Of a DNA stretch of 49,623 bases, positions 1 through 7,795 are shown piece after piece. Location: positions 1 through 49,623 of the forward strand of contig JALHNQ010000022.1 of the NCBI GenBank assembly GCA_022843405.1, given 5' to 3'. The position numbers and the translations under genes were made by a program. The stretch comes from Methylocystis sp. (GTDB lineage: Bacteria; Pseudomonadota; Alphaproteobacteria; Rhizobiales; Beijerinckiaceae). The notes under the pieces are model-generated. The model was not told the DNA's origin. It did not search any database and saw only the letters and a program-made list of their open reading frames with translations. How positions within the stretch are numbered: position 1 is the first letter of the stretch; each line of letters begins with the position of its first letter.

Positions 1-213
1 GCCCGCGCCCGGCGCGGTGAGATCGGCGGCGCCGCCCCCGCCGCCGCCGCCCGCTTGTTCGAGCGGGCCGACGCCGTTCGACCATGCGCCCCCAGCGCCG
101 CCATCCTTGGCGCCGCCCGTCGTTCCCGCGCTTCCAGCGTTCGCGACGCCGGCGACATAAACAATGCCGCCTGGGCCGCCATTGACGGGCGTATTGCCGG
201 CGGTGACGGAATA
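1..213 (-). pseudogene. Glycine-rich surface-protein-like fragment, no start, runs off the window
   Basis: Read on the minus strand from about 213 towards 1, one frame stays open and has strongly biased composition: Gly/Ala/Val/Thr-rich with runs such as GGPGGIVYVAG and GGGGGGGG. This resembles glycine-rich autotransporter or adhesin passenger repeats. The frame is preceded directly by a TAA (216-214), and no ATG, GTG or TTG follows in frame before the glycine-rich part, so it cannot start here. It is either a 5'-truncated remnant or a frameshifted gene. It ends at the window edge, so its C-terminal part is unseen. It abuts the left end of the IS1595-type element, and truncation by that insertion or an associated deletion is plausible. 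The family call rests on composition only. Confidence 0.4.
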
Positions 214-232
214 TTACCTTTCGCATACCCAC
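210..232 (+). repeat. Left terminal inverted repeat / target-duplication region of the IS1595-type element
   Basis: The stretch starts AATATTACC and ends ATACCCAC. Its mate on the opposite strand is at 4837-4859. The outer 7 and inner 8 positions match, plus a TT in the middle. The AATATTACC part is also found as a direct copy at 4854-4862. It overlaps the last codons and stop codon of vsr. Confidence 0.5.
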
Positions 233-648
233 CCGGTTTTTCGGGGGAATTCGGCTTCCAGCATTCTTGCCGCTTGGATAATAGTCCTAGTCTCGCATTC
301 CCAAATGACGAGCACCCGCCAGCCCATCGCCTTCAGGCGCGCGTAGCTTTCGGCGTCTCGCTGCTGGTTCGCTCGAAACTTTCGCTCCCAGAACGCGGAG
401 TTCGATTTGGGCACTGTGGTTCGTTTGCATCCTTCGTGACGATGCCAGAAGCATCCGTTCACGAAAATGACCGTTTTCCATTTCTTGAGCACTAGGTCCG
501 GCCGACCAGGGAGGCGCCTATCGTGAAGCCGGAATCTGAGTCCCAACCCGTGCGCCGCCTTCCTCACCCTCATTTCGGGAGAGGTGTCTTTACTCCTGAC
601 CCGGCCCATCATGGCGGATCGTGACTCGGAAGAAACGTGATCGATCAC
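214..648 (-). CDS. vsr: Very short patch repair endonuclease (Vsr)
   Basis: The 144-residue protein matches the Vsr/DUF559-like restriction-endonuclease fold. It has MGRVRSKDTSPE near residue 14, RLHDRRLPGRPDLV at 40-53 with the catalytic aspartate D51, and VNGCFWHRHEGC at 63-74. In the family this enzyme nicks 5' of T in T:G mismatches left by deamination of 5-methylcytosine, protecting sites methylated by a partner Dcm. Asn64 stands where E. coli Vsr has His64, while His69 and the metal-site Cys/His residues are kept. It starts at GTG 648, 28 bases after the GHKL ATPase gene, and is the last gene of a dcm-GHKL-vsr run. Its final codons and TAA lie in the terminal repeat of the mobile element. 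Function is confident; mismatch repair versus a restriction role in this cassette is open. Confidence 0.9.
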   Translation of the reverse strand: MIDHVSSESRSAMMGRVRSKDTSPEMRVRKAAHGLGLRFRLHDRRLPGRPDLVLKKWKTVIFVNGCFWHRHEGCKRTTVPKSNSAFWERKFRANQQRDAESYARLKAMGWRVLVIWECETRTIIQAARMLEAEFPRKTGWVCER

Positions 649-676
649 CGCAATCTCGGCTGATTTCGCCCCATCA

Positions 677-2377
677 TCACATTTCGATCAGGTGCCGCAA
701 CATCGGAAGAAGCTCGTCTCGAATACTGAAGACGCGGGCTCTGTCGATCGGTTGGAAGGGGTTGTGGATTGCCCCGTTCAGCGTCGGTATGTGCGCCGTC
801 ATTCTCTTCAGGCTGTGTTTGATATGCGCTTGTTTTGCTCCCCAAACGTCAGGGTTCTTTTCGAGATAGACCAGCATTTCTTCAATCTTCGGGAGAAAGC
901 TTTTTTCTTCTGCTGGGTTGATTGTGACTCCCTTTGAGCGGCGCCGGTCGATTGCGAACTGTTTCAGTTCGTCGAACTTACTATTGCGATGAAGGTATGC
1001 GGACACGCTGAATTCGAACAACATTCGCATCAATGCGAGGCCTGAATAGGAGAGATCGCCGAGGTCCAGCGCCTTCGCTTCGTGGACCACCTTCAGATGC
1101 TTGTCCACGCAATGCTGCTCGCTGACGTCGCTCGGTAGGATCGTTCGGAATTGATGATGGTCCGGCTTTATCACGGGCTGAGCAGGTTTGGTGGCCGGCG
1201 CACTTCGCGTCGGAGACGGCCTAGAAGCAGAAGTTAAGGGAGGCGGAGACGGCGGACCTTTCGCCGGCGCCTTCGGCGGGATAGGCGCCGGGATAGGACT
1301 GCGCTTGCGCTGATCTGTGAACGCGCGCCACTTCTCTGCATATTTGCGCATATCGGTCAGGGCCATCCGATAAGACGGATTGTTCAGGTCGACGTCGGTC
1401 TTGGTTGTATTCCACGGCAGTTTCTCTGGGTCGCCGACGAAGCTGACGAAACCGACGAAGCCGTAAAACTCGCTGTGGAACTTGGTTTCCCATCCCGTCT
1501 TGTCGGAGGTATCCGCAACCTTGATCGCCCTTTCATTGCAGAGGACGTTCCATCCGTATTCGCCTGTAAGCTGGGCGTTCCGGGCCTTATCATAATCGGT
1601 TTCCTTGCTGAAGCGATGGTCTCGGTGTTGGCCATACTTCACGATTATGGCCACGCCATCGGCAGACTTGTAGAACTTATGCTCCCCTTCGAACGGGCCG
1701 TTTTCCCGCAACTGAATCTCTTCATTCTCCGCCACGGTTCCGTTGACGGTGATGGCAAGACCTTTCGCGATGAATCTCGCATAACGGCGTCCGATCTCAT
1801 GCCGAAGATTCTTGGCCCAATCCGCATCGGCGAATTCCTGCGAAATCTCTTGCGGAAGGGCGGTGATTTCGATCCGGGTGCCTATTTTACCGGCCGAAGG
1901 AAATTTGGTTGCCGGCAAATTCCAGTCTTCGGAGGCGAGATATTCATCGACCCGCAACACTAGTTCGGTTCGCGATTTACCGGTATCGGTTTGCAGGTGG
2001 CTGTCGCGACCGAGTTTGAAAAGTGCGCGGTTTAGGCCCACGCCAAAGGCGCCAATTCCACCTAGGTGAGGCGAACGATGTCCGAATCTAAGGACCATTT
2101 CTTGAAGGTCCTTGGTCTCAATGCCCGCACAATTGTCTGAGATCGAAAATCCGGCTCCGCTGAATCTGAGGTCGATTTTGTATCCAGCGTAATCGCTGGG
2201 CATGGCGCCACTATCGGCCATAGCGCCGACGAGCGCCGCCTCGCTCGCCGCGTCAACGGAGTTGTCGATCAAGTCGAAAATGCACGCTTCGATCGTCGCG
2301 TCTTTGGTCAAGCCACTGACGACCACCTTCTTGGTCGGGCTTGTGTCGACTAAAATTTTCGTGCCGGCTTTAGCCAT
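677..2377 (-). CDS. MORC/MutL-like GHKL ATPase of a restriction-modification cassette
   Basis: The protein has 566 residues from ATG 2377, which is preceded by a good ribosome site (GGGGGGCGAAG); an upstream in-frame ATG at 2413 has none. The N-terminal half is a GHKL ATPase: FDLIDNSVDAA at 34-44, the Mg/ATP motif DNCAGI at 81-86 and GGIGAFGVGLNRAL at 106-119. An S5-like second half of the ATPase module seems to follow to about 340. Next comes a proline/serine-rich linker (roughly 345-400), then a helical C-terminal domain of about 165 residues that I do not recognise. GHKL ATPases related to MutL and eukaryotic MORC are known to co-occur with cytosine methylases and Vsr-type nucleases in restriction-modification operons. 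It sits between dcm (42-base gap) and vsr (28-base gap). The usual catalytic Glu is replaced by Asp (D35). Likely an ATP-driven DNA clamp or remodeller; mechanism unproven. Confidence 0.8.
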   Translation of the reverse strand: MAKAGTKILVDTSPTKKVVVSGLTKDATIEACIFDLIDNSVDAASEAALVGAMADSGAMPSDYAGYKIDLRFSGAGFSISDNCAGIETKDLQEMVLRFGHRSPHLGGIGAFGVGLNRALFKLGRDSHLQTDTGKSRTELVLRVDEYLASEDWNLPATKFPSAGKIGTRIEITALPQEISQEFADADWAKNLRHEIGRRYARFIAKGLAITVNGTVAENEEIQLRENGPFEGEHKFYKSADGVAIIVKYGQHRDHRFSKETDYDKARNAQLTGEYGWNVLCNERAIKVADTSDKTGWETKFHSEFYGFVGFVSFVGDPEKLPWNTTKTDVDLNNPSYRMALTDMRKYAEKWRAFTDQRKRSPIPAPIPPKAPAKGPPSPPPLTSASRPSPTRSAPATKPAQPVIKPDHHQFRTILPSDVSEQHCVDKHLKVVHEAKALDLGDLSYSGLALMRMLFEFSVSAYLHRNSKFDELKQFAIDRRRSKGVTINPAEEKSFLPKIEEMLVYLEKNPDVWGAKQAHIKHSLKRMTAHIPTLNGAIHNPFQPIDRARVFSIRDELLPMLRHLIEM

Positions 2378-2419
2378 CTTCGCCCCCCGGTAATAGGGCG
2401 AAAGCTGAACCAATACGGG

Positions 2420-3568
2420 CTATGCCGCAAGGGGAGCGCCTATTTTTGAGGCGATCCGTCGCATCAGGCCATAGGAAACCACAGGGGAGACGCTGTTCCC
2501 GATCATCCGGAAACTGTGCCACTTGGTTTCGTGAAAGACGAACCAGTCCGGAAAACCCTGAAGACGAGCCGCTTCGCGCACAGTGATGACGCGGCCTTTG
2601 CCGGGGTGAAGGGGACGAACAGCCTGAAACGCTCCTTTGTCCGCTCCGGTTCCCGCGCGCAGCGTCGGGCACTGTCCATCCCAGTCGAGCCGGAACGATT
2701 TCGTGATTCGGTCCGTCTTGCCGGCGGCAATGACAGCATATCTGCGGGCGATGTCGCCACTATGTCGGGTTTCGACCAATCCCGACACATATCCATCGCT
2801 ATGCCATGTGACGGCGTCACTCCATCCGAGACCGGATGGGGGGCGTTTTCTCAGGCGTTTGGCATAGTCGGAAAGATTTTCGGCATTCCGTTTTGGGTAT
2901 TTGGCCCAACCGAATTGATCGCTTTTGTTTTCGGGGATCGGGCTGGGTAAGTCTGAGATTGCATCCCGCACCGTCGCTACCGACGATCTCCGCTTGGGGC
3001 GCAGCCATTCTATGGACATGTCGTCGACTTCGGCGGGATCATAGCCCACAACCACGACACGCTTGCGGTTGGTTGCGGCACCGAAGTCGGCGGCGTTTAC
3101 GATGAATGGATCAAGCACTTTATAGCGCGAAGCGACCTGTTCGATTGCGCCGGTCAGCAGGCCGATCCTGTCTTCGTGCAAAAGGCCTTCCACGTTCTCC
3201 ATCACGAAAAACTTCGGCTTCAGCGCCGCAACATGCCGATAGAAATGATGAAGCAGGCTGTTCCGTGGATCGTCTTTCCGGCGTTTTCCGATCCAACTGA
3301 AGCCCTGACACGGCGGGCCGCCGATGACCCCATCGGGCCGCGCGCTTCCGAGTAGCAGGCGCCAGTCGGAAGCCCCTATATCGGCCACGCTGGCCTCTAT
3401 CGCTGCCGACCCGGGGAAGTTCCGGCGATAGGCGGATTGCAGGGTGCCGTCTATGTCGATAGCCGCAAGCGAACGAAAACCGGCCATTTCGGCACCTAGC
3501 GAAAACCCGCCGCACCCGCAGAATAAGTCGACCATCGTGCCGTGTTGCCGCGTCCCCGATGTAGCCAT
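2420..3568 (-). CDS. dcm: DNA (cytosine-5-)-methyltransferase
   Basis: The 382-residue protein has the ordered C5-methyltransferase motifs: MVDLFCGCGGFSLG (motif I, about 12-25), GGPPCQGFS with the catalytic Cys87 (motif IV), MENVEGLL (motif VI, about 123-130), then RLQGFPDW and MIGNSVSP (motifs IX and X) near the C terminus. It transfers methyl from S-adenosylmethionine to carbon 5 of cytosine in a recognition sequence that cannot be read from the protein. The start is taken at ATG 3568 because GGGGGTGAA precedes it directly; an in-frame start at 3610 would add 14 unconserved residues. It is the first of three co-directional genes (dcm, GHKL ATPase, vsr), so the host genome is probably methylated by an element-borne enzyme. 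Confidence 0.92.
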   Translation of the reverse strand: MATSGTRQHGTMVDLFCGCGGFSLGAEMAGFRSLAAIDIDGTLQSAYRRNFPGSAAIEASVADIGASDWRLLLGSARPDGVIGGPPCQGFSWIGKRRKDDPRNSLLHHFYRHVAALKPKFFVMENVEGLLHEDRIGLLTGAIEQVASRYKVLDPFIVNAADFGAATNRKRVVVVGYDPAEVDDMSIEWLRPKRRSSVATVRDAISDLPSPIPENKSDQFGWAKYPKRNAENLSDYAKRLRKRPPSGLGWSDAVTWHSDGYVSGLVETRHSGDIARRYAVIAAGKTDRITKSFRLDWDGQCPTLRAGTGADKGAFQAVRPLHPGKGRVITVREAARLQGFPDWFVFHETKWHSFRMIGNSVSPVVSYGLMRRIASKIGAPLAA

Positions 3569-3659
3569 TTCACCCCCGACAAATGTTTGAGGGCTACAAG
3601 ATGGCGGCAAACGTCACGGTTGTCGACCGGGGCCGGCCACGCGGGACGAAAAATTATTT

Positions 3660-3845
3660 CTATGTTGCCGACTTGTTACGCTTCTTGCGTCTGGGCGGCA
3701 CAATTTTAGAGAACGCGGCCTCGAATTCCTTGCCGGTCTCGTCGACGCCGAGCGCACGAGCGGTTTCAATGAACCGCCGGGACTGCTCGTCATCGACGTT
3801 TTTTTGGCTTTTTGGTTTTGAAGAACCCTTTGGGCGCAGGGCCAT
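3660..3845 (-). CDS. Small conserved-type hypothetical protein within the element
   Basis: A 61-residue basic protein: a Lys/Ser-rich start, a central DEQSRRFIETARALGVDETG segment, then FEAAFSKIVPPRRKK and a basic tail. The FIETAR-LG-DE-G-FE-AF-K-VPP pattern resembles small uncharacterised proteins I have seen in alphaproteobacteria and on plasmids; no function is known to me. It lies 14 bases downstream of the transposase stop in the same orientation and may be translated with it. It ends 91 bases before the methyltransferase gene. It could be an accessory factor of the element or simply cargo. Confidence 0.6.
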   Translation of the reverse strand: MALRPKGSSKPKSQKNVDDEQSRRFIETARALGVDETGKEFEAAFSKIVPPRRKKRNKSAT

Positions 3846-3859
3846 AAGTTCTCATTCCA

Positions 3860-4795
3860 CTAATGAGGCGTGCGATAGGTCAGCCGCTTGCCGACGATGC
3901 CTTTCACGATCCGATCCGCTCGCGCCGCATCTCCAACACCGAGCGATGCGCGATTATTATAGCGGAAGTCAAACTCCGCCAGATACCGGTGAAGATGTTT
4001 TTCGGCGCAGTGCTGATAGGTGCCCTTCATGCCGCGTTTGAACACAGAGAAATAGCCCTCGACAGTGTTGGTATGCACGGTGCGGCTTTCCTCATACCGG
4101 ACATACTCCTTCGCGGAATGCATGACGGTATGGTGCTCTGCGAACTCCCCTGAAACACTGCCATAGAGGCGACTTTCATCGGTGCAGACGGCGGTCTCGC
4201 GTGCGATATTGTTGCGCATAATCGCAGTGATGGTAGCCTTGTCCGCCTTCTCCACATAGAAGGTGCGGGCGTCGCCGCCGCGCTCGACGAGAGCGATGAC
4301 AGCGCACTTGCTGGAATGGGCCGCTTTGCCGCGCCGAGTGCGCTTGATGACGATTTCCTTGTCGCCGTGGTAGGTTTCGTCAACCTCGATAGTCTTGCCT
4401 GCTCCGCCCAAGGGCACAATCCCGACGGTCTTCATCGCTTCGCGAATGCGATGCGACATGAACCATGCGGTCTTCAGGGTGACACCCAGAGTGCGGTGAA
4501 GCTGGTTCGAACTGACGCCCTTCTTGCTGGAGCACATCAGGAGCATCGCCTGCAACCAAAGATGCATAGCAACGTGGCTGGATTCGAAGACGGTCCCGAC
4601 CTTAACGGTGAACGGCTTTCGGCAACCGTAGCACTTATAAGTGCCAATCCGGGTGCTCTTGCCGCCCATCTTGGAGATACGCTCGATGCCGCCGCAATGG
4701 GGACAGATAGGGCCGTCCGGCCATACCCGCGCCTCAACCCACGCGTAAGCAGCGGCTTCGTCATGCAAATGTTCCGAAGATAGGACTGAAGTCAT
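3860..4795 (-). CDS. IS1595-family transposase
   Basis: The 311-residue protein has the IS1595/ISXO2-like layout. An N-terminal zinc ribbon (CPHCGG near 34-39, CYGCRKPFTVKVGTVFESS near 55-73) is followed by a helical region with the signature LWLQAMLLMCSSKKGVSSNQL. A DDE-type catalytic core comes next: VDETYHGDKE, TDESRLYG and HTNTVEGYFSVFKRGMKGTYQHC. All parts appear intact, so the element may still be active. It is read towards the methyltransferase cassette. The 60 bases upstream are AT-rich and hold the right terminal repeat. Family assignment is firm; subgroup is not determined. Confidence 0.9.
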   Translation of the reverse strand: MTSVLSSEHLHDEAAAYAWVEARVWPDGPICPHCGGIERISKMGGKSTRIGTYKCYGCRKPFTVKVGTVFESSHVAMHLWLQAMLLMCSSKKGVSSNQLHRTLGVTLKTAWFMSHRIREAMKTVGIVPLGGAGKTIEVDETYHGDKEIVIKRTRRGKAAHSSKCAVIALVERGGDARTFYVEKADKATITAIMRNNIARETAVCTDESRLYGSVSGEFAEHHTVMHSAKEYVRYEESRTVHTNTVEGYFSVFKRGMKGTYQHCAEKHLHRYLAEFDFRYNNRASLGVGDAARADRIVKGIVGKRLTYRTPH

Positions 4796-4836
4796 AATGC
4801 TCTAACCCTCTGTTACGGCTTATTATGGCTGCTTCA

Positions 4837-4859
4837 GTGGGTATATCAAGTATAATATT
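4837..4859 (-). repeat. Right terminal inverted repeat of the IS1595-type element
   Basis: Read on the minus strand from 4859 inward it starts AATATTA and ends ATACCCAC, matching 210-232. It lies about 40 bases upstream of the transposase start. The direct copy AATATTACC at 4854-4862 overlaps it and could be the target duplication. Confidence 0.5.
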
Positions 4860-4899
4860 ACCAATATAATCCTCAAACCAGAAAATAATCCGCAGCGCG

Positions 4900-5412
4900 T
4901 CAGAATCGCGCCTTCTTCGGCCAGCGCTTGGGCCACAGCCTGATGAAATCCGGCAGATCGTCGGTGTCGACATCGTCCTCGCCCGCCTCGATCCGGCCTC
5001 GCGCCGACACGCCGGCGCGACGGACGCTTGCCGGATCGCCGGAGATCAGCGGATGCCAGGGCGGCAGCGGCTTGCCGTGAAAGCGCAGGACATAGGCGCA
5101 GGTCGGCGGCAGCCAGCGAATATCCTTGAGTTTCTCCAGCGTTAGCCGCACGCAGTCCGGCACATAGCGCCGCCGGCGCGGATAGTCGCCGCAGCGGCAG
5201 CTCTCCTTGTCGAGCAATTTGCAGGCGACGCTCGTGTGATAGATCGCGCCGGTGTCCTCGTCTTCGAGCTTGACGAGGCAGCAGCGGCCGCAGCCGTCGC
5301 AGAGTTGCTCCCACTCGGCGCGGGCGAGGTCCGAAAGCGGTTTTTCCCAGAACGGCGTCTCGGTCCGCGCGGGCGCGGCCGGCAGGGCATTTTCGCCTTT
5401 TTTTAACGCCAT
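4900..5412 (-). CDS. ycgN: YcgN/UPF0260 family cysteine-cluster protein
   Basis: From ATG 5412, preceded by GAAAGAGAAG, the product is 170 residues. It has [30 protein letters not shown] early, then more cysteines in [10 protein letters not shown] and [10 protein letters not shown], and the family tail [27 protein letters not shown]. The CxxCxxCC and later cysteines belong to the YkgJ/UPF0153-UPF0260 zinc or iron-sulfur cluster families, whose function is not established. It is a monocistronic minus-strand gene between the mobile element and a divergent penicillin-binding protein gene. The in-frame ATG at 5484 would add 24 basic residues and is less likely. Confidence 0.85.
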   Translation of the reverse strand: [170 protein letters not shown]

Positions 5413-5554
5413 TCTTCTCTTTCGGCTTGCCGCTTTGCGCGCTGGAAACCATAACGGCAGGTGGGTCGCGCGGACTGTCGTCAAGATGGTTTAAAAAGTG
5501 TTAAGGTCCACAGAGCGCCGGTAAGTATGATCGGCGTGAGGGAGCATTCGAGCT

Positions 5555-7795
5555 GTGTTGAAGCGTTTCCAGGCTTCCGCTTTCGTCAAGCGTATCAAGC
5601 GCATCCTGCTCGGGTTCGACGCGCTGATCGACTCCGCCATGTACCAGAGCGGGCGGCGCGCCCGCGAGCGCTATGAAGATTTCTCGACCTTCATGGAGCG
5701 CTTCCACGTCTCCGGCGTGGCGCGGGTCGGGGTGGAACTGTCCTGCGAGGCGCTGACGCTCGGGCTTGGCGCCGGAATCGTCGCCATGGCGCTGGCCTCC
5801 TCGGCCTTTCAGATGACCAGCGACGAGAATTGGCTCAAGCAGACCGATCTCGCCGTCACTTTTCTCGACCGCTACGGCGCCGACGTCGGCCAGCGCGGCA
5901 TCAAGCATGACGACGCCGTGCCGCTCGATCAATATCCTGATCATCTTATCAAGGCGGTGCTGGCGACGGAAGACCGCCGCTTCTACGAGCATTTCGGCAT
6001 CGACGTGATCGGCACGCTGCGGGCGCTGACCGTCAATGCGCGTTCGTCCGGCGTGGTGCAGGGCGGCTCCTCGATCAGCCAGCAGCTCGCCAAGAATCTT
6101 TTCCTTTCGAACGAGCGCACGATCACCCGCAAGATCAACGAGGCCTTCCTCGCGCTGTGGCTCGAGCACCATCTGACCAAACGCGAAATCCTCAAGCTCT
6201 ATCTCGATCGCGTCTATATGGGCGGCGGCGCCTTCGGCATTCAGGCGGCGGCGGAGTTTTATTTCGGCAAGTCGGTCAAGGACGTGACGCTCGCTGAAGC
6301 GGCGATGCTCGCCGGCCTGTTCAAGGCACCGACGAAATACGCGCCGCATGTCAATCTGCCGGCGGCGCGCGCCCGCGCCAATGACGTGCTGCGCAATCTC
6401 GTCGACTCGGGCCTCATGACCGAAAGCCAGATCGTCGCCGCCTTGCGCAATCCGGCGACGCCGATCGACCGCGCCCGGGAGACGAGTCCCGACTGGTATC
6501 TCGACTACGCTTACAGCGAAATCCGCAAACTCGCTCAGAACGGCAAGCTCGGCGACCATCGCGTGCTCAGCGTGCGCACCGCGCTCGACTCGAACATCCA
6601 AAGGCGCGCCGAAGAGGTCGTCGAAACCAATTTGCGCGAGCAGGGCCGCAGCTTTCACGCCAAGCAGAGCGCGGCGGTGGTCATGGAGCCGGACGGCGCG
6701 GTTCGCGCCATCGTCGGCGGGCGGGACTATGGCGCGAGCCAGTTCAACCGTGCGACCGACGCCGCGCGCCAGCCCGGCTCCTCCTTCAAGCCCTATGTCT
6801 ATCTGACGGCGCTGATGAGCGGCAAATTCAAGCCGACGACCATCGTCACCGACCGGCCGACCTGCATCGGCAATTATTGCGTCCATAATTACAGCGGCGG
6901 CTACGCCGGCTCCATGCCGCTCGCCATGGCGTTGGCGAAATCCTTGAACACGATCGCCATCCAATTGTCGCAGGCGATCGGCAATGGCGATTCGCGGATC
7001 GGCCGCGCCAAGATCATCGACACTTGCCGGCGTCTCGGCATCACCACGCCGCTTGAGGATACGCCGTCGCTGCCGGTCGGTCAGAGCGACGTCATTCCGC
7101 TCGAACATTCGGCGGCTTACGCCGCCTTCGTCAACGGCGGCAAGAAGGTCACGCCTTACGCCGCCGTCGAAATCCGCAACCGCCAGGGCGATCTGCTCTA
7201 TCGCCACGACCGCGACGCCCCGCCGCAAAAGCAGGCGGTGCCTTACGACAAGGTCGTCGAACTCGCCGGCATGATGAAAAAGGTCGTCGAGGAAGGCACC
7301 GGCAAACGCGCCCAGCTTGGCGAAGGCATCGACGTCATCGGCAAAACCGGCACGACGAACGGCTACAAGGACGCGTGGTTCTGCGGCTATTCCGGCACGA
7401 TGGGCGGTTGCGTCTGGTACGGCAATGACGACAATGCGCCGATGAACAACATGACTGGCGGCACGCTGCCGGCCGGCACCTGGCACGACATCATGGCCTA
7501 TGCGCATCAGGGCGCGACCTTGAAGCCGATCGTCGGATTGCGGCCTGATCCCAAAGGCGCGACAGCCGCCGCCAACGCCAATGTGGTGAAGCCCGTCGAA
7601 CTCGGCGCCCCGCAGCGGCCCGCGACCTTGTCGAAGAGCGCGATCCAGGCGCTCGAATCGATACAGATGAAGATCAAGGCGGTTGGCGGCGACAAGCAGA
7701 GTGCGCTCGAGGCGCCCGAACCTACCGCGTCCGACGCCGCGCCGCGGGAGGCGATGCGCGCGCCGCACGCGGCCGACGGCGGCGTGATACGTTAG
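5555..7795 (+). CDS. Bifunctional class A penicillin-binding protein (PBP1A type)
   Basis: The 746-residue protein polymerises and cross-links peptidoglycan in the periplasm. A basic N-terminal cytoplasmic stretch leads to a membrane segment near 66-86. The glycosyltransferase 51 domain follows, with ATEDRRFYEHFGID (catalytic Glu139), GGSSISQQLAKN and KREILKLYLDRVYMGG. The transpeptidase domain carries S409SFK (SxxK), S463LN (SxN) and K597TG. The N-terminal cytoplasmic region is somewhat long. The C-terminal roughly 70 residues are Ala/Pro-rich and low in complexity. Translation probably starts at GTG 5555 after GGGAG at 5540-5544. The 142 bases up to ycgN should hold its promoter. It is followed 13 bases later by a DUF1214 gene. 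Confidence 0.93.
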   Translation: MLKRFQASAFVKRIKRILLGFDALIDSAMYQSGRRARERYEDFSTFMERFHVSGVARVGVELSCEALTLGLGAGIVAMALASSAFQMTSDENWLKQTDLAVTFLDRYGADVGQRGIKHDDAVPLDQYPDHLIKAVLATEDRRFYEHFGIDVIGTLRALTVNARSSGVVQGGSSISQQLAKNLFLSNERTITRKINEAFLALWLEHHLTKREILKLYLDRVYMGGGAFGIQAAAEFYFGKSVKDVTLAEAAMLAGLFKAPTKYAPHVNLPAARARANDVLRNLVDSGLMTESQIVAALRNPATPIDRARETSPDWYLDYAYSEIRKLAQNGKLGDHRVLSVRTALDSNIQRRAEEVVETNLREQGRSFHAKQSAAVVMEPDGAVRAIVGGRDYGASQFNRATDAARQPGSSFKPYVYLTALMSGKFKPTTIVTDRPTCIGNYCVHNYSGGYAGSMPLAMALAKSLNTIAIQLSQAIGNGDSRIGRAKIIDTCRRLGITTPLEDTPSLPVGQSDVIPLEHSAAYAAFVNGGKKVTPYAAVEIRNRQGDLLYRHDRDAPPQKQAVPYDKVVELAGMMKKVVEEGTGKRAQLGEGIDVIGKTGTTNGYKDAWFCGYSGTMGGCVWYGNDDNAPMNNMTGGTLPAGTWHDIMAYAHQGATLKPIVGLRPDPKGATAAANANVVKPVELGAPQRPATLSKSAIQALESIQMKIKAVGGDKQSALEAPEPTASDAAPREAMRAPHAADGGVIR

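What the first reader, a model, noticed from the sequence alone, without database searches (positions are those of the whole stretch)
210..4859. IS1595-family element that appears to carry a whole dcm-MORC-vsr cassette
The transposase, small ORF, cytosine methyltransferase, GHKL ATPase and Vsr are co-oriented and bounded by matching sequences: 23-bp imperfect inverted repeats (210-232 and 4837-4859) and a 9-bp direct repeat AATATTACC. No closer second end follows the transposase. A methylation/repair-endonuclease/MORC module moving as cargo of a single IS would be an uncommon vehicle for a defence-like system. GHKL-MORC proteins with Dcm and Vsr are known from restriction-modification operons; this packaging is what may be new.
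Basis: partly seen in the sequence, partly recalled or inferred. Interest (0 to 1): 0.75.

Follow-up and report, generated by a model that had tools for sequence, protein, structure and literature searches.

The report
Cargo-carrying IS1595 element with DNA-methylation operon
A small jumping gene in a methane-eating bacterium carries a complete DNA-methylation and DNA-cutting gene set between its own two ends, and relatives of it in other bacteria carry other modules, some resembling toxins or virus defences.

Summary
The packaging claim holds; the target-duplication claim does not. Window 207-4862 (4,656 bp) is one IS1595-family element in a Methylocystis genome. Its ends were fixed independently: 78 other unique relatives with matching ends and 8-bp target duplications give a 25-bp consensus. 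The distal-end matrix scores 4862 at 26.8 bits and 207 at 23.3; the next site in the window scores 9.1, and the best one between the ends 4.8. The real flanks (199-206, 4863-4870) match at 0 of 8 bases. In relatives these flanks lie about 14 kb (G032) or 21 kb (G010) apart around a gene-transfer-agent cluster whose marker this genome lacks, so a deletion at the element's end is likely. No delimited relative is a bare IS; cargo includes HEPN-like, DUF3800, PIN and HigBA proteins and one complete PD-lambda-5 pair. None of 80 named loci held dcm, GHKL or vsr. Passenger-bearing IS1595 elements, and a methyltransferase passenger in another IS family, are already described; this cassette on IS1595 I did not find in print. 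Anti-phage function is inferred, not tested.

The parts
207..231 (+). distal inverted repeat of the element (CGGAATATTACCTTTCGCATACCCA)
   Evidence: second-best site of the distal-end matrix in the whole window, 23.3 bits, next site 9.1; left-flank homology ends at 206 in G026, G021 and G010
214..648 (-). vsr, Vsr-type mismatch/nicking endonuclease, 144 aa, GTG start; stop codon inside the distal inverted repeat
   Evidence: PF03852 E 3.3e-29, TIGR00632 E 2.5e-40; frame check
677..2413 (-). GHKL (MORC/paraMORC-like) ATPase, 578 aa, with a C-terminal region weakly matching PD-Lambda-5_A profiles
   Evidence: PF13589 E 5e-10; PADLOC PDLC03998 E 4.5e-8 over residues 401-572; ATP-site motifs present
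2420..3610 (-). C5-cytosine DNA methyltransferase, 396 aa
   Evidence: PF00145 E 2.1e-58, TIGR00675; PPCQG, ENV and GN.V motifs present
3660..3845 (-). 61-aa small ORF, recurrent element component
   Evidence: HMM of this family hits 72 of 86 elements (16 of the 86 trained it), always on the transposase strand
3860..4795 (-). IS1595 transposase, 311 aa
   Evidence: PF12762, PF12760, NF033547; D139, D206 and E246 invariant in the 11-row alignment A1
4838..4862 (-). proximal inverted repeat (read on minus strand GGTAATATTATACTTGATATACCCA)
   Evidence: best site of both end matrices
4863..4870 (.). AATATAAT, probable surviving copy of the original target duplication
   Evidence: the matches of G032 and G006 begin at 4863; AT-rich like the TSDs of relatives, mean 77% AT, n=57; inference
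1..206 (-). left flank: C-terminal fragment of a glycine-rich gene that lies next to a gene-transfer-agent cluster in relatives
   Evidence: 74% and 72% DNA identity over 1-206 in G026 and G021; translations
4900..5484 (-). right flank: CxxCxxCC (YcgN-like) gene
   Evidence: PF03692 E 2.7e-11; DNA match to 4800-5600 in 35 of 39 genus genomes, own included, some of them short

Best explanation
Window 207-4862 is a single transposable element of the IS1595 family, of a lineage (probably ISfinder's ISNwi1 group) whose sampled members carry passenger genes between the transposase and the far end. The transposase recognises the two 25-bp ends and moves everything between them, including dcm, the GHKL ATPase and vsr (structure shown; movement inferred). 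The passenger operon most likely works as a compact restriction/defence-like or self-maintenance module: Dcm marks host DNA, and the GHKL ATPase and the Vsr-type nuclease act on DNA lacking the mark or on mismatches (inferred from family knowledge). The element probably first inserted beside the YcgN-like gene, keeping AATATAAT as its right target copy. A later intramolecular event at its distal end then deleted some 14-21 kb, namely the gene-transfer-agent cluster and part of the glycine-rich gene, which removed the left target copy (inferred from comparison with relatives).
For: Ends: 57 of 80 named loci have IR >=18/25 and TSD >=7/8, shuffled control 0 of 40, all 57 with 8/8; 26 of 47 other loci have 8/8. 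Window ends rank 1 and 2 in the window, and no listed site between them reaches the lowest training score. Homology to relatives stops at 206 (G026, G021, G010) and starts at 4863 (G032, G006). No delimited relative is under 1,862 bp, also when elements of 700-1,862 bp were sought in the 80 loci. Small ORF in 72 of 86 elements. A sister element in L209 carries both PD-Lambda-5 genes (E 1.9e-159 and 3.4e-123), the second also hitting type II methyltransferase models. Two of four GHKL relatives in the family sample have dcm and vsr hits within the stretch held (L152, L154), and a plasmid relative lies in a DISARM operon. PF13547 in 30 of 39 genus genomes but not in this one; the marker lies between the two flanks in six genomes (G005, G006, G007, G010, G021, G032), in the same order and orientation.
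Against: No second copy of this element with this cargo was found: one copy in the own genome, no dcm/ghkl/vsr hit in 80 related loci, no plasmid record covering 80% of the element. This copy has no target duplication. The left flank is only 206 bp to the contig end, and the left-flank matches in G032 and G005 are short (51 and 71 bp). BLAST match limits are approximate, and in most relatives the right-flank match begins further in, mostly 4877-4907. Some real distal ends score as low as 8.4 in the matrix. No experiment shows mobility or defence. The PD-Lambda-5 similarity of the GHKL protein is weak; direct BLASTP with the L209 protein gives E 0.087.
Confidence: 0.85

Rival explanations
1. 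The IS is a bare or small IS1595 that inserted next to a resident dcm-GHKL-vsr operon; the distal end is a chance match.
For: The inverted repeat on its own is only 74% complementary and listed 11th of 97 pairs. In the same genome another IS1595 sits at the stop codon of a different vsr-dcm operon without carrying it (L076 9160-11451, IR 15/24, TSD AATGAGTA 8/8).
Against: Position 207 scores 23.3 bits against 9.1 for the best other site in 49.6 kb; flank homology to relatives stops at 206; no alternative end between transposase and vsr (best 4.8 bits); GC of transposase (0.576) and cargo (0.566) agree and differ from the rest of the window (0.631).
Confidence: 0.06
2. The element inserted after an unrelated deletion had already joined the two flanks, and its target duplication has decayed or was never made.
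For: The flanks are non-adjacent in the six genomes where both were found on one contig; a few relatives also lack a clear duplication (L067; L172, IR 24/25 with TSD 4/8); other genomes of the genus lack the cluster marker too (G015, G020, G036), so it can be lost in other ways.
Against: Both deletion breakpoints coincide with the element's ends, which an earlier independent deletion would not predict; 78 other unique elements keep the duplication.
Confidence: 0.12
3. The cargo is housekeeping for the element or host (orphan methylation plus very-short-patch repair), not defence.
For: Vsr with Dcm is the classic repair pair (established knowledge); no further restriction endonuclease or helicase is present among the five ORFs.
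Against: GHKL ATPases of this kind recur in restriction-type operons (Iyer 2008, passages); the plasmid relative sits inside a DISARM operon; some sister elements carry toxin- or defence-like cargo.
Confidence: 0.35

Closest known systems
IS1595 family 'transporter IS' with passenger genes (Siguier et al. 2009; ISNha5 and ISNwi1 groups)
   Same: Transposase family, 8-bp duplications in relatives, single IS moving passenger genes. The PMC11891212 passage names ISNha5 (IS1595 family) with a regulator as passenger. End pattern GGNNAT...TAT and size 1.75-4.75 kb fit the ISNwi1 group as I recall it from the ISfinder/TnPedia table.
   Different: Passenger is a Dcm-GHKL-Vsr operon; this copy lacks a duplication. 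ISfinder and the 2009 paper were not available, so the group name is not tested.
IS elements with a methyltransferase passenger (IS1380-family example named in PMC11891212)
   Same: A methyltransferase gene as IS passenger is already on record (passage).
   Different: Another IS family; no GHKL or Vsr mentioned in the passage.
Prokaryotic MORC/paraMORC restriction-modification operons (Iyer et al. 2008)
   Same: GHKL ATPase with cytosine methylase and Vsr; the paper also says these systems behave like transposable elements (passages read).
   Different: No SFII helicase and no extra nuclease here; packed inside an IS.
PD-lambda-5 (Vassallo et al. 2022)
   Same: Weak profile match of the GHKL protein's C-terminus; a sister element in L209 carries the complete pair. 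The paper calls it a compacted prophage version of an RM+Abi system (passages).
   Different: The window operon lacks PD-lambda-5_B and has a GHKL N-terminus.
DISARM-associated ATP-binding protein (Microvirga terrae plasmid pR24_2)
   Same: 28% identical GHKL protein between the MmeI and O-methyltransferase genes of an operon with drmD and drmA.
   Different: No drm genes in the window element.

Membership tests
IS1595 family | DDE_Tnp_IS1595 domain and N-terminal zinc ribbon | tested here: met
   PF12762 and PF12760 above cut-off; NF033547 193 bits, cut-off 75
IS1595 family | terminal inverted repeats bracketing the transposase | tested here: met
   207-231 and 4838-4862 are the two top sites of the relatives' distal-end matrix
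IS1595 family | 8-bp target duplication | tested here: not met
   this copy 0 of 8 (flanks); met (8/8) in 26 of 47 loci and in 57 of 80. 'Usually' present according to PMC8101967 (passage); absence here is explained by a flank deletion, so membership rests on domain and ends
ISNwi1 group of IS1595 | group-specific end sequence and transposase clade | not testable with these tools
   ISfinder not held; end pattern and size recalled only; ISNwi3 is listed as an ISNwi1-group member in PMC9670130 (passage)
passenger-carrying ('transporter') IS | genes not needed for transposition between the ends of a single IS | tested here: met
   dcm, GHKL and vsr lie between 207 and 4862; best intervening end-like site 4.8 bits
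MORC restriction-modification operon | GHKL ATPase with DNA methylase and/or restriction-fold nuclease | tested here: met
MORC restriction-modification operon | S5 domain after GHKL (MORC proper) | not tested
   no structure was obtained; only PF13589 matched
MORC restriction-modification operon | SFII helicase partner (about 70% of MORC neighbourhoods in Iyer 2008) | tested here: not met
   none among the five ORFs
PD-lambda-5 | A plus B genes | tested here: not met
   only a partial C-terminal match to A, no B among the matches shown for the five ORFs (for dcm the best 25 of 59 families were shown)
DISARM | drmA/drmB with methyltransferase | tested here: not met
   no helicase-type ORF in the element; dcm also matches DrmMII models, far weaker than its best MTase_II model

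The most novel reading that the evidence does not exclude
A clade of IS1595 elements in Alphaproteobacteria is a general single-IS chassis (transposase, two 25-bp ends and a dedicated ~60-aa protein) that collects and exchanges toxin-antitoxin and anti-phage modules, from HEPN, PIN and DUF3800 proteins to PD-lambda-5 and, here, a Dcm-MORC-Vsr system; such small elements would be an overlooked carrier of bacterial immunity, and this copy also erased the host's gene-transfer-agent cluster.
Probability: 0.5. Interest if true: 0.78.

Novelty: new variant of a known kind. Interest (0 to 1): 0.6.

Why it matters
Defence genes are usually traced to prophages, plasmids, large transposons and islands. 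If 2-5 kb single-IS elements routinely carry them, they offer a fast and easily missed route for immunity genes to move, and the well-defined ends make their cargo easy to mine. The link to loss of the gene-transfer-agent cluster is a testable case of an element removing a host DNA-exchange system.

Tried and rejected
Rejected: AATATTACC as target duplication. Rejected: the own-genome vsr-dcm at L076 as cargo of its neighbouring IS1595; that IS has its own ends (IR 15/24) and an 8/8 duplication just outside the operon. Rejected: deriving the GHKL protein from PD-lambda-5_A by direct comparison (E 0.087).

Led nowhere: genome-contig scan with the GHKL protein, 9 pattern matches and no relative; plasmid search with GHKL, 3 records, all under 30%; the same protein in 248 family genomes, 4 others at 31-34%, none with an end-like site of 6 or fewer mismatches in the stretch held. 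Of those four, L152 and L154 have dcm and vsr hits, L151 and L153 have none. Dcm on plasmids: 787 records, all under 60% identity, best listed 40%. Whole element on plasmids: 42 records, matches to the transposase/small-ORF part in the 10 rows listed, none covering 80%. Papers: three searches for IS1595 with toxin-antitoxin, anti-phage or (without the name IS1595) cargo/defence/passenger terms listed 3, 5 and 2 papers; no title or shown abstract described defence cargo on IS1595, and I opened none of those ten. Siguier 2009 and the 2014 review were not held and were not read.

Limits: the relatives were found with this transposase and this end pattern, and only the best 80 of 565 loci were kept, from a candidate list that was itself capped, so 'no bare IS' is a statement about the sample. 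In 23 of the 80 no validated pair was found; for 12 of those fewer than 2,300 bases were held downstream of the transposase start; L166, L172, L205 and L217 are near misses. Of 47 loci, 19 gave no credible pair; one of them (L142) was a stretch I fetched in error. 84 elements reduce to 79 with different sequence, window included. The small-ORF HMM was trained on 16 of the 86 elements it was run on. Cargo: 33 of the 42 proteins that I listed were scanned singly and 14 of the 33 matched any Pfam family at E 0.01, some below the curated cut-off (HEPN in L120, Cas2 in L115, PIN in L114). The cargo-swap count (14 HEPN-like elements, at least 11 changes on a 77-row FastTree tree) has no shuffled-label control. 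The gene-transfer-agent loss rests on one marker, PF13547, and on the joined flanks.
Full report
What was checked. The region holds five intact minus-strand ORFs: IS1595 transposase, a 61-aa ORF, a C5 methyltransferase, a GHKL ATPase and Vsr.

Fixing the ends. A nucleotide search of 248 family genomes with the transposase region, own-genome searches, fetched stretches and an end-pattern search of 397 order genomes (27 genomes hit; reversed-pattern control 3 hits in all) gave 47 loci for an end finder. Of 47, 24 have a perfect 8-bp duplication exactly three bases outside RATATTATACTTGACRTACCCA; two more (L071, L080) have 8/8 with one extra base; L067 has none and L114 has 6/8; 19 gave no credible pair. 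A named-genome scan with an alignment of 11 transposases kept the best 80 of 565 loci. Of 80, 57 have IR >=18/25 and duplication >=7/8, in fact 8/8 in all 57; a shuffled-downstream control gave 0 of 40. Together these are 79 elements of different sequence including the window. A matrix from the 57 distal ends scores the window's 4862 end at 26.8 bits and its 207 end at 23.3; the next site in 49.6 kb scores 9.1 and lies outside the element, and the best site between the ends scores 4.8. The 57 training ends themselves range from 8.4 to 39.9, so the matrix is not a perfect classifier. The element is therefore 207-4862, 4,656 bp, the largest among the delimited ones (others 1,862-4,116 bp).

The duplication. 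Both AATATTACC copies lie inside 207-4862, and AATATT is self-complementary. The real flanking octamers are GGCGGTGA and AATATAAT, 0 of 8. The left-flank homology to other genomes of the genus ends at 206 in G026, G021 and G010, and that of the right flank begins at 4863 in G032 and G006, further in for the others. In G032 the two flanks are about 13.9 kb apart, with terminase, portal, prohead protease, NlpC/P60 and GTA_TIM/Rcc01698 proteins between them; the left-flank match there is weak. In G010 they are about 21 kb apart. In six genomes (G005, G006, G007, G010, G021, G032) the PF13547 marker lies between the two flanks, which keep the window's order and orientation. PF13547 is found in 30 of 39 genus genomes, 26 of 30 high-quality ones, and not in this 99.98% complete genome. 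It is also missing from G020, G015 and G036 among the high-quality genomes, so its absence is not unique. The right octamer is AT-rich like the duplications of relatives (mean 77% AT; 43 of 57 with at least 6 of 8). I infer insertion beside the YcgN-like gene and then deletion outward from the distal end. Intramolecular deletion is known for IS elements in general (recalled); it is not shown here.

The genus. G011, placed in the same genus, has a contig of the same length, 353,969 bp, as a Methylocystis silviterrae record with a matching transposase, so the window belongs to Methylocystis or its genome-taxonomy equivalent.

What relatives carry. Among the 80 named loci no element under 1,862 bp was found, also when 700-1,862 bp was searched, and each of the 57 has at least one further ORF of 110 aa or more (81 in all). 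Pfam on these 81: DUF3800 in 15, PIN in 4, GmrSD_N in 2, and single RelA_SpoT, NYN, Schlafen-AlbA_2 and HNH matches among others; at most 31 of 81 matched anything. PADLOC listed 56 families, 25 shown, many of them hitting one protein. Of 33 cargo proteins scanned singly, 14 matched Pfam, adding SocA/Panacea, HigB plus HTH, DUF6932 and, just below its cut-off, HEPN. A HEPN-like family with an R-x4-H motif occurs in 14 of 79 elements. L209 carries PD-Lambda-5_A and _B, L206 a PDC-S33 candidate, L187 a partial pAgo-like match. No locus of the 80 had a dcm, GHKL or vsr hit at E 1e-3. The small ORF is found in 72 of 86 elements (16 of the 86 trained the model), always on the transposase strand, at varying distance from it. 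So part of the cargo is toxin- or defence-like, and most of it is of unknown function.

What the cargo does. All catalytic motifs looked for are present (their meaning is recalled). Iyer et al. 2008 (PMC2292703, passages) describe MORC GHKL operons with cytosine methylases and Vsr-type nucleases as restriction-modification systems. Bellieny-Rabelo et al. 2021 (PMC8011034, passages) link related GHKL proteins to type II systems and Vsr. The nearest plasmid relative of the GHKL protein lies in a DISARM operon, and G265 has vsr, dcm and a GHKL gene side by side without these IS ends. Defence is thus the likeliest role, but orphan methylation with repair is not excluded.

Known or new. Passenger-bearing IS elements, including an IS1595 member with a regulator and an IS1380-family member with a methyltransferase, are described (PMC11891212, passage, citing Siguier 2009). 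IS1595 groups and 8-bp duplications are described in PMC8101967 (passages). I found no paper in my searches describing defence cargo as typical of these elements, but I saw only listings and passages, and the library lacks most subscription papers and ISfinder.

Verdict. The observation of an element with cargo is sound, the duplication is not, and the more interesting result is the breadth of toxin- and defence-like cargo on this chassis.

Noticed in passing
L076 7550-11451 (own genome C2, about 78549-82450): A different IS1595 element with its own ends and 8/8 duplication AATGAGTA sits at the stop codon of another vsr-dcm pair; a second dcm-vsr pair lies about 6 kb away (L076 383-1977).
   Followed up: partly
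window 1-206 and 4863 onward; L150: The genome lacks the gene-transfer-agent marker PF13547, which lies between these flanks in six relatives.
   Followed up: yes
window 3660-3845: A ~60-aa lysine-rich protein recurs in 72 of 86 elements (core RF.E.AR.L..DESG..FE.A..KI); no Pfam, NCBIfam or PADLOC match for the window copy; role unknown.
   Followed up: partly
window 207-231: The stop codon of vsr lies inside the distal inverted repeat, so cargo gene and element end are fused at base level.
   Followed up: no
L209 (CALHAW010000001.1), element of 3,512 bp: An IS1595 element with an 8/8 duplication carries a complete PD-lambda-5 pair.
   Followed up: partly
L074 and L075 (own genome C10 and C60): Two more IS1595 elements in the same genome with 8/8 duplications and different cargo; the L075 cargo falls in the HEPN-like family, and neither of the two cargo proteins scanned had a Pfam match.
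   Followed up: partly
L187: Element cargo of 522 aa matching part (49-449 of 1121) of a pAgo model (E 5.6e-42).
   Followed up: no
L120: The 4,116-bp element has an extra 321-aa ORF whose start reads like another IS transposase (my reading, not a database match), which may explain its size.
   Followed up: no
G020 (same genus, 100% complete): Another genome of the genus without the PF13547 marker; how it lost or lacks it was not examined.
   Followed up: no
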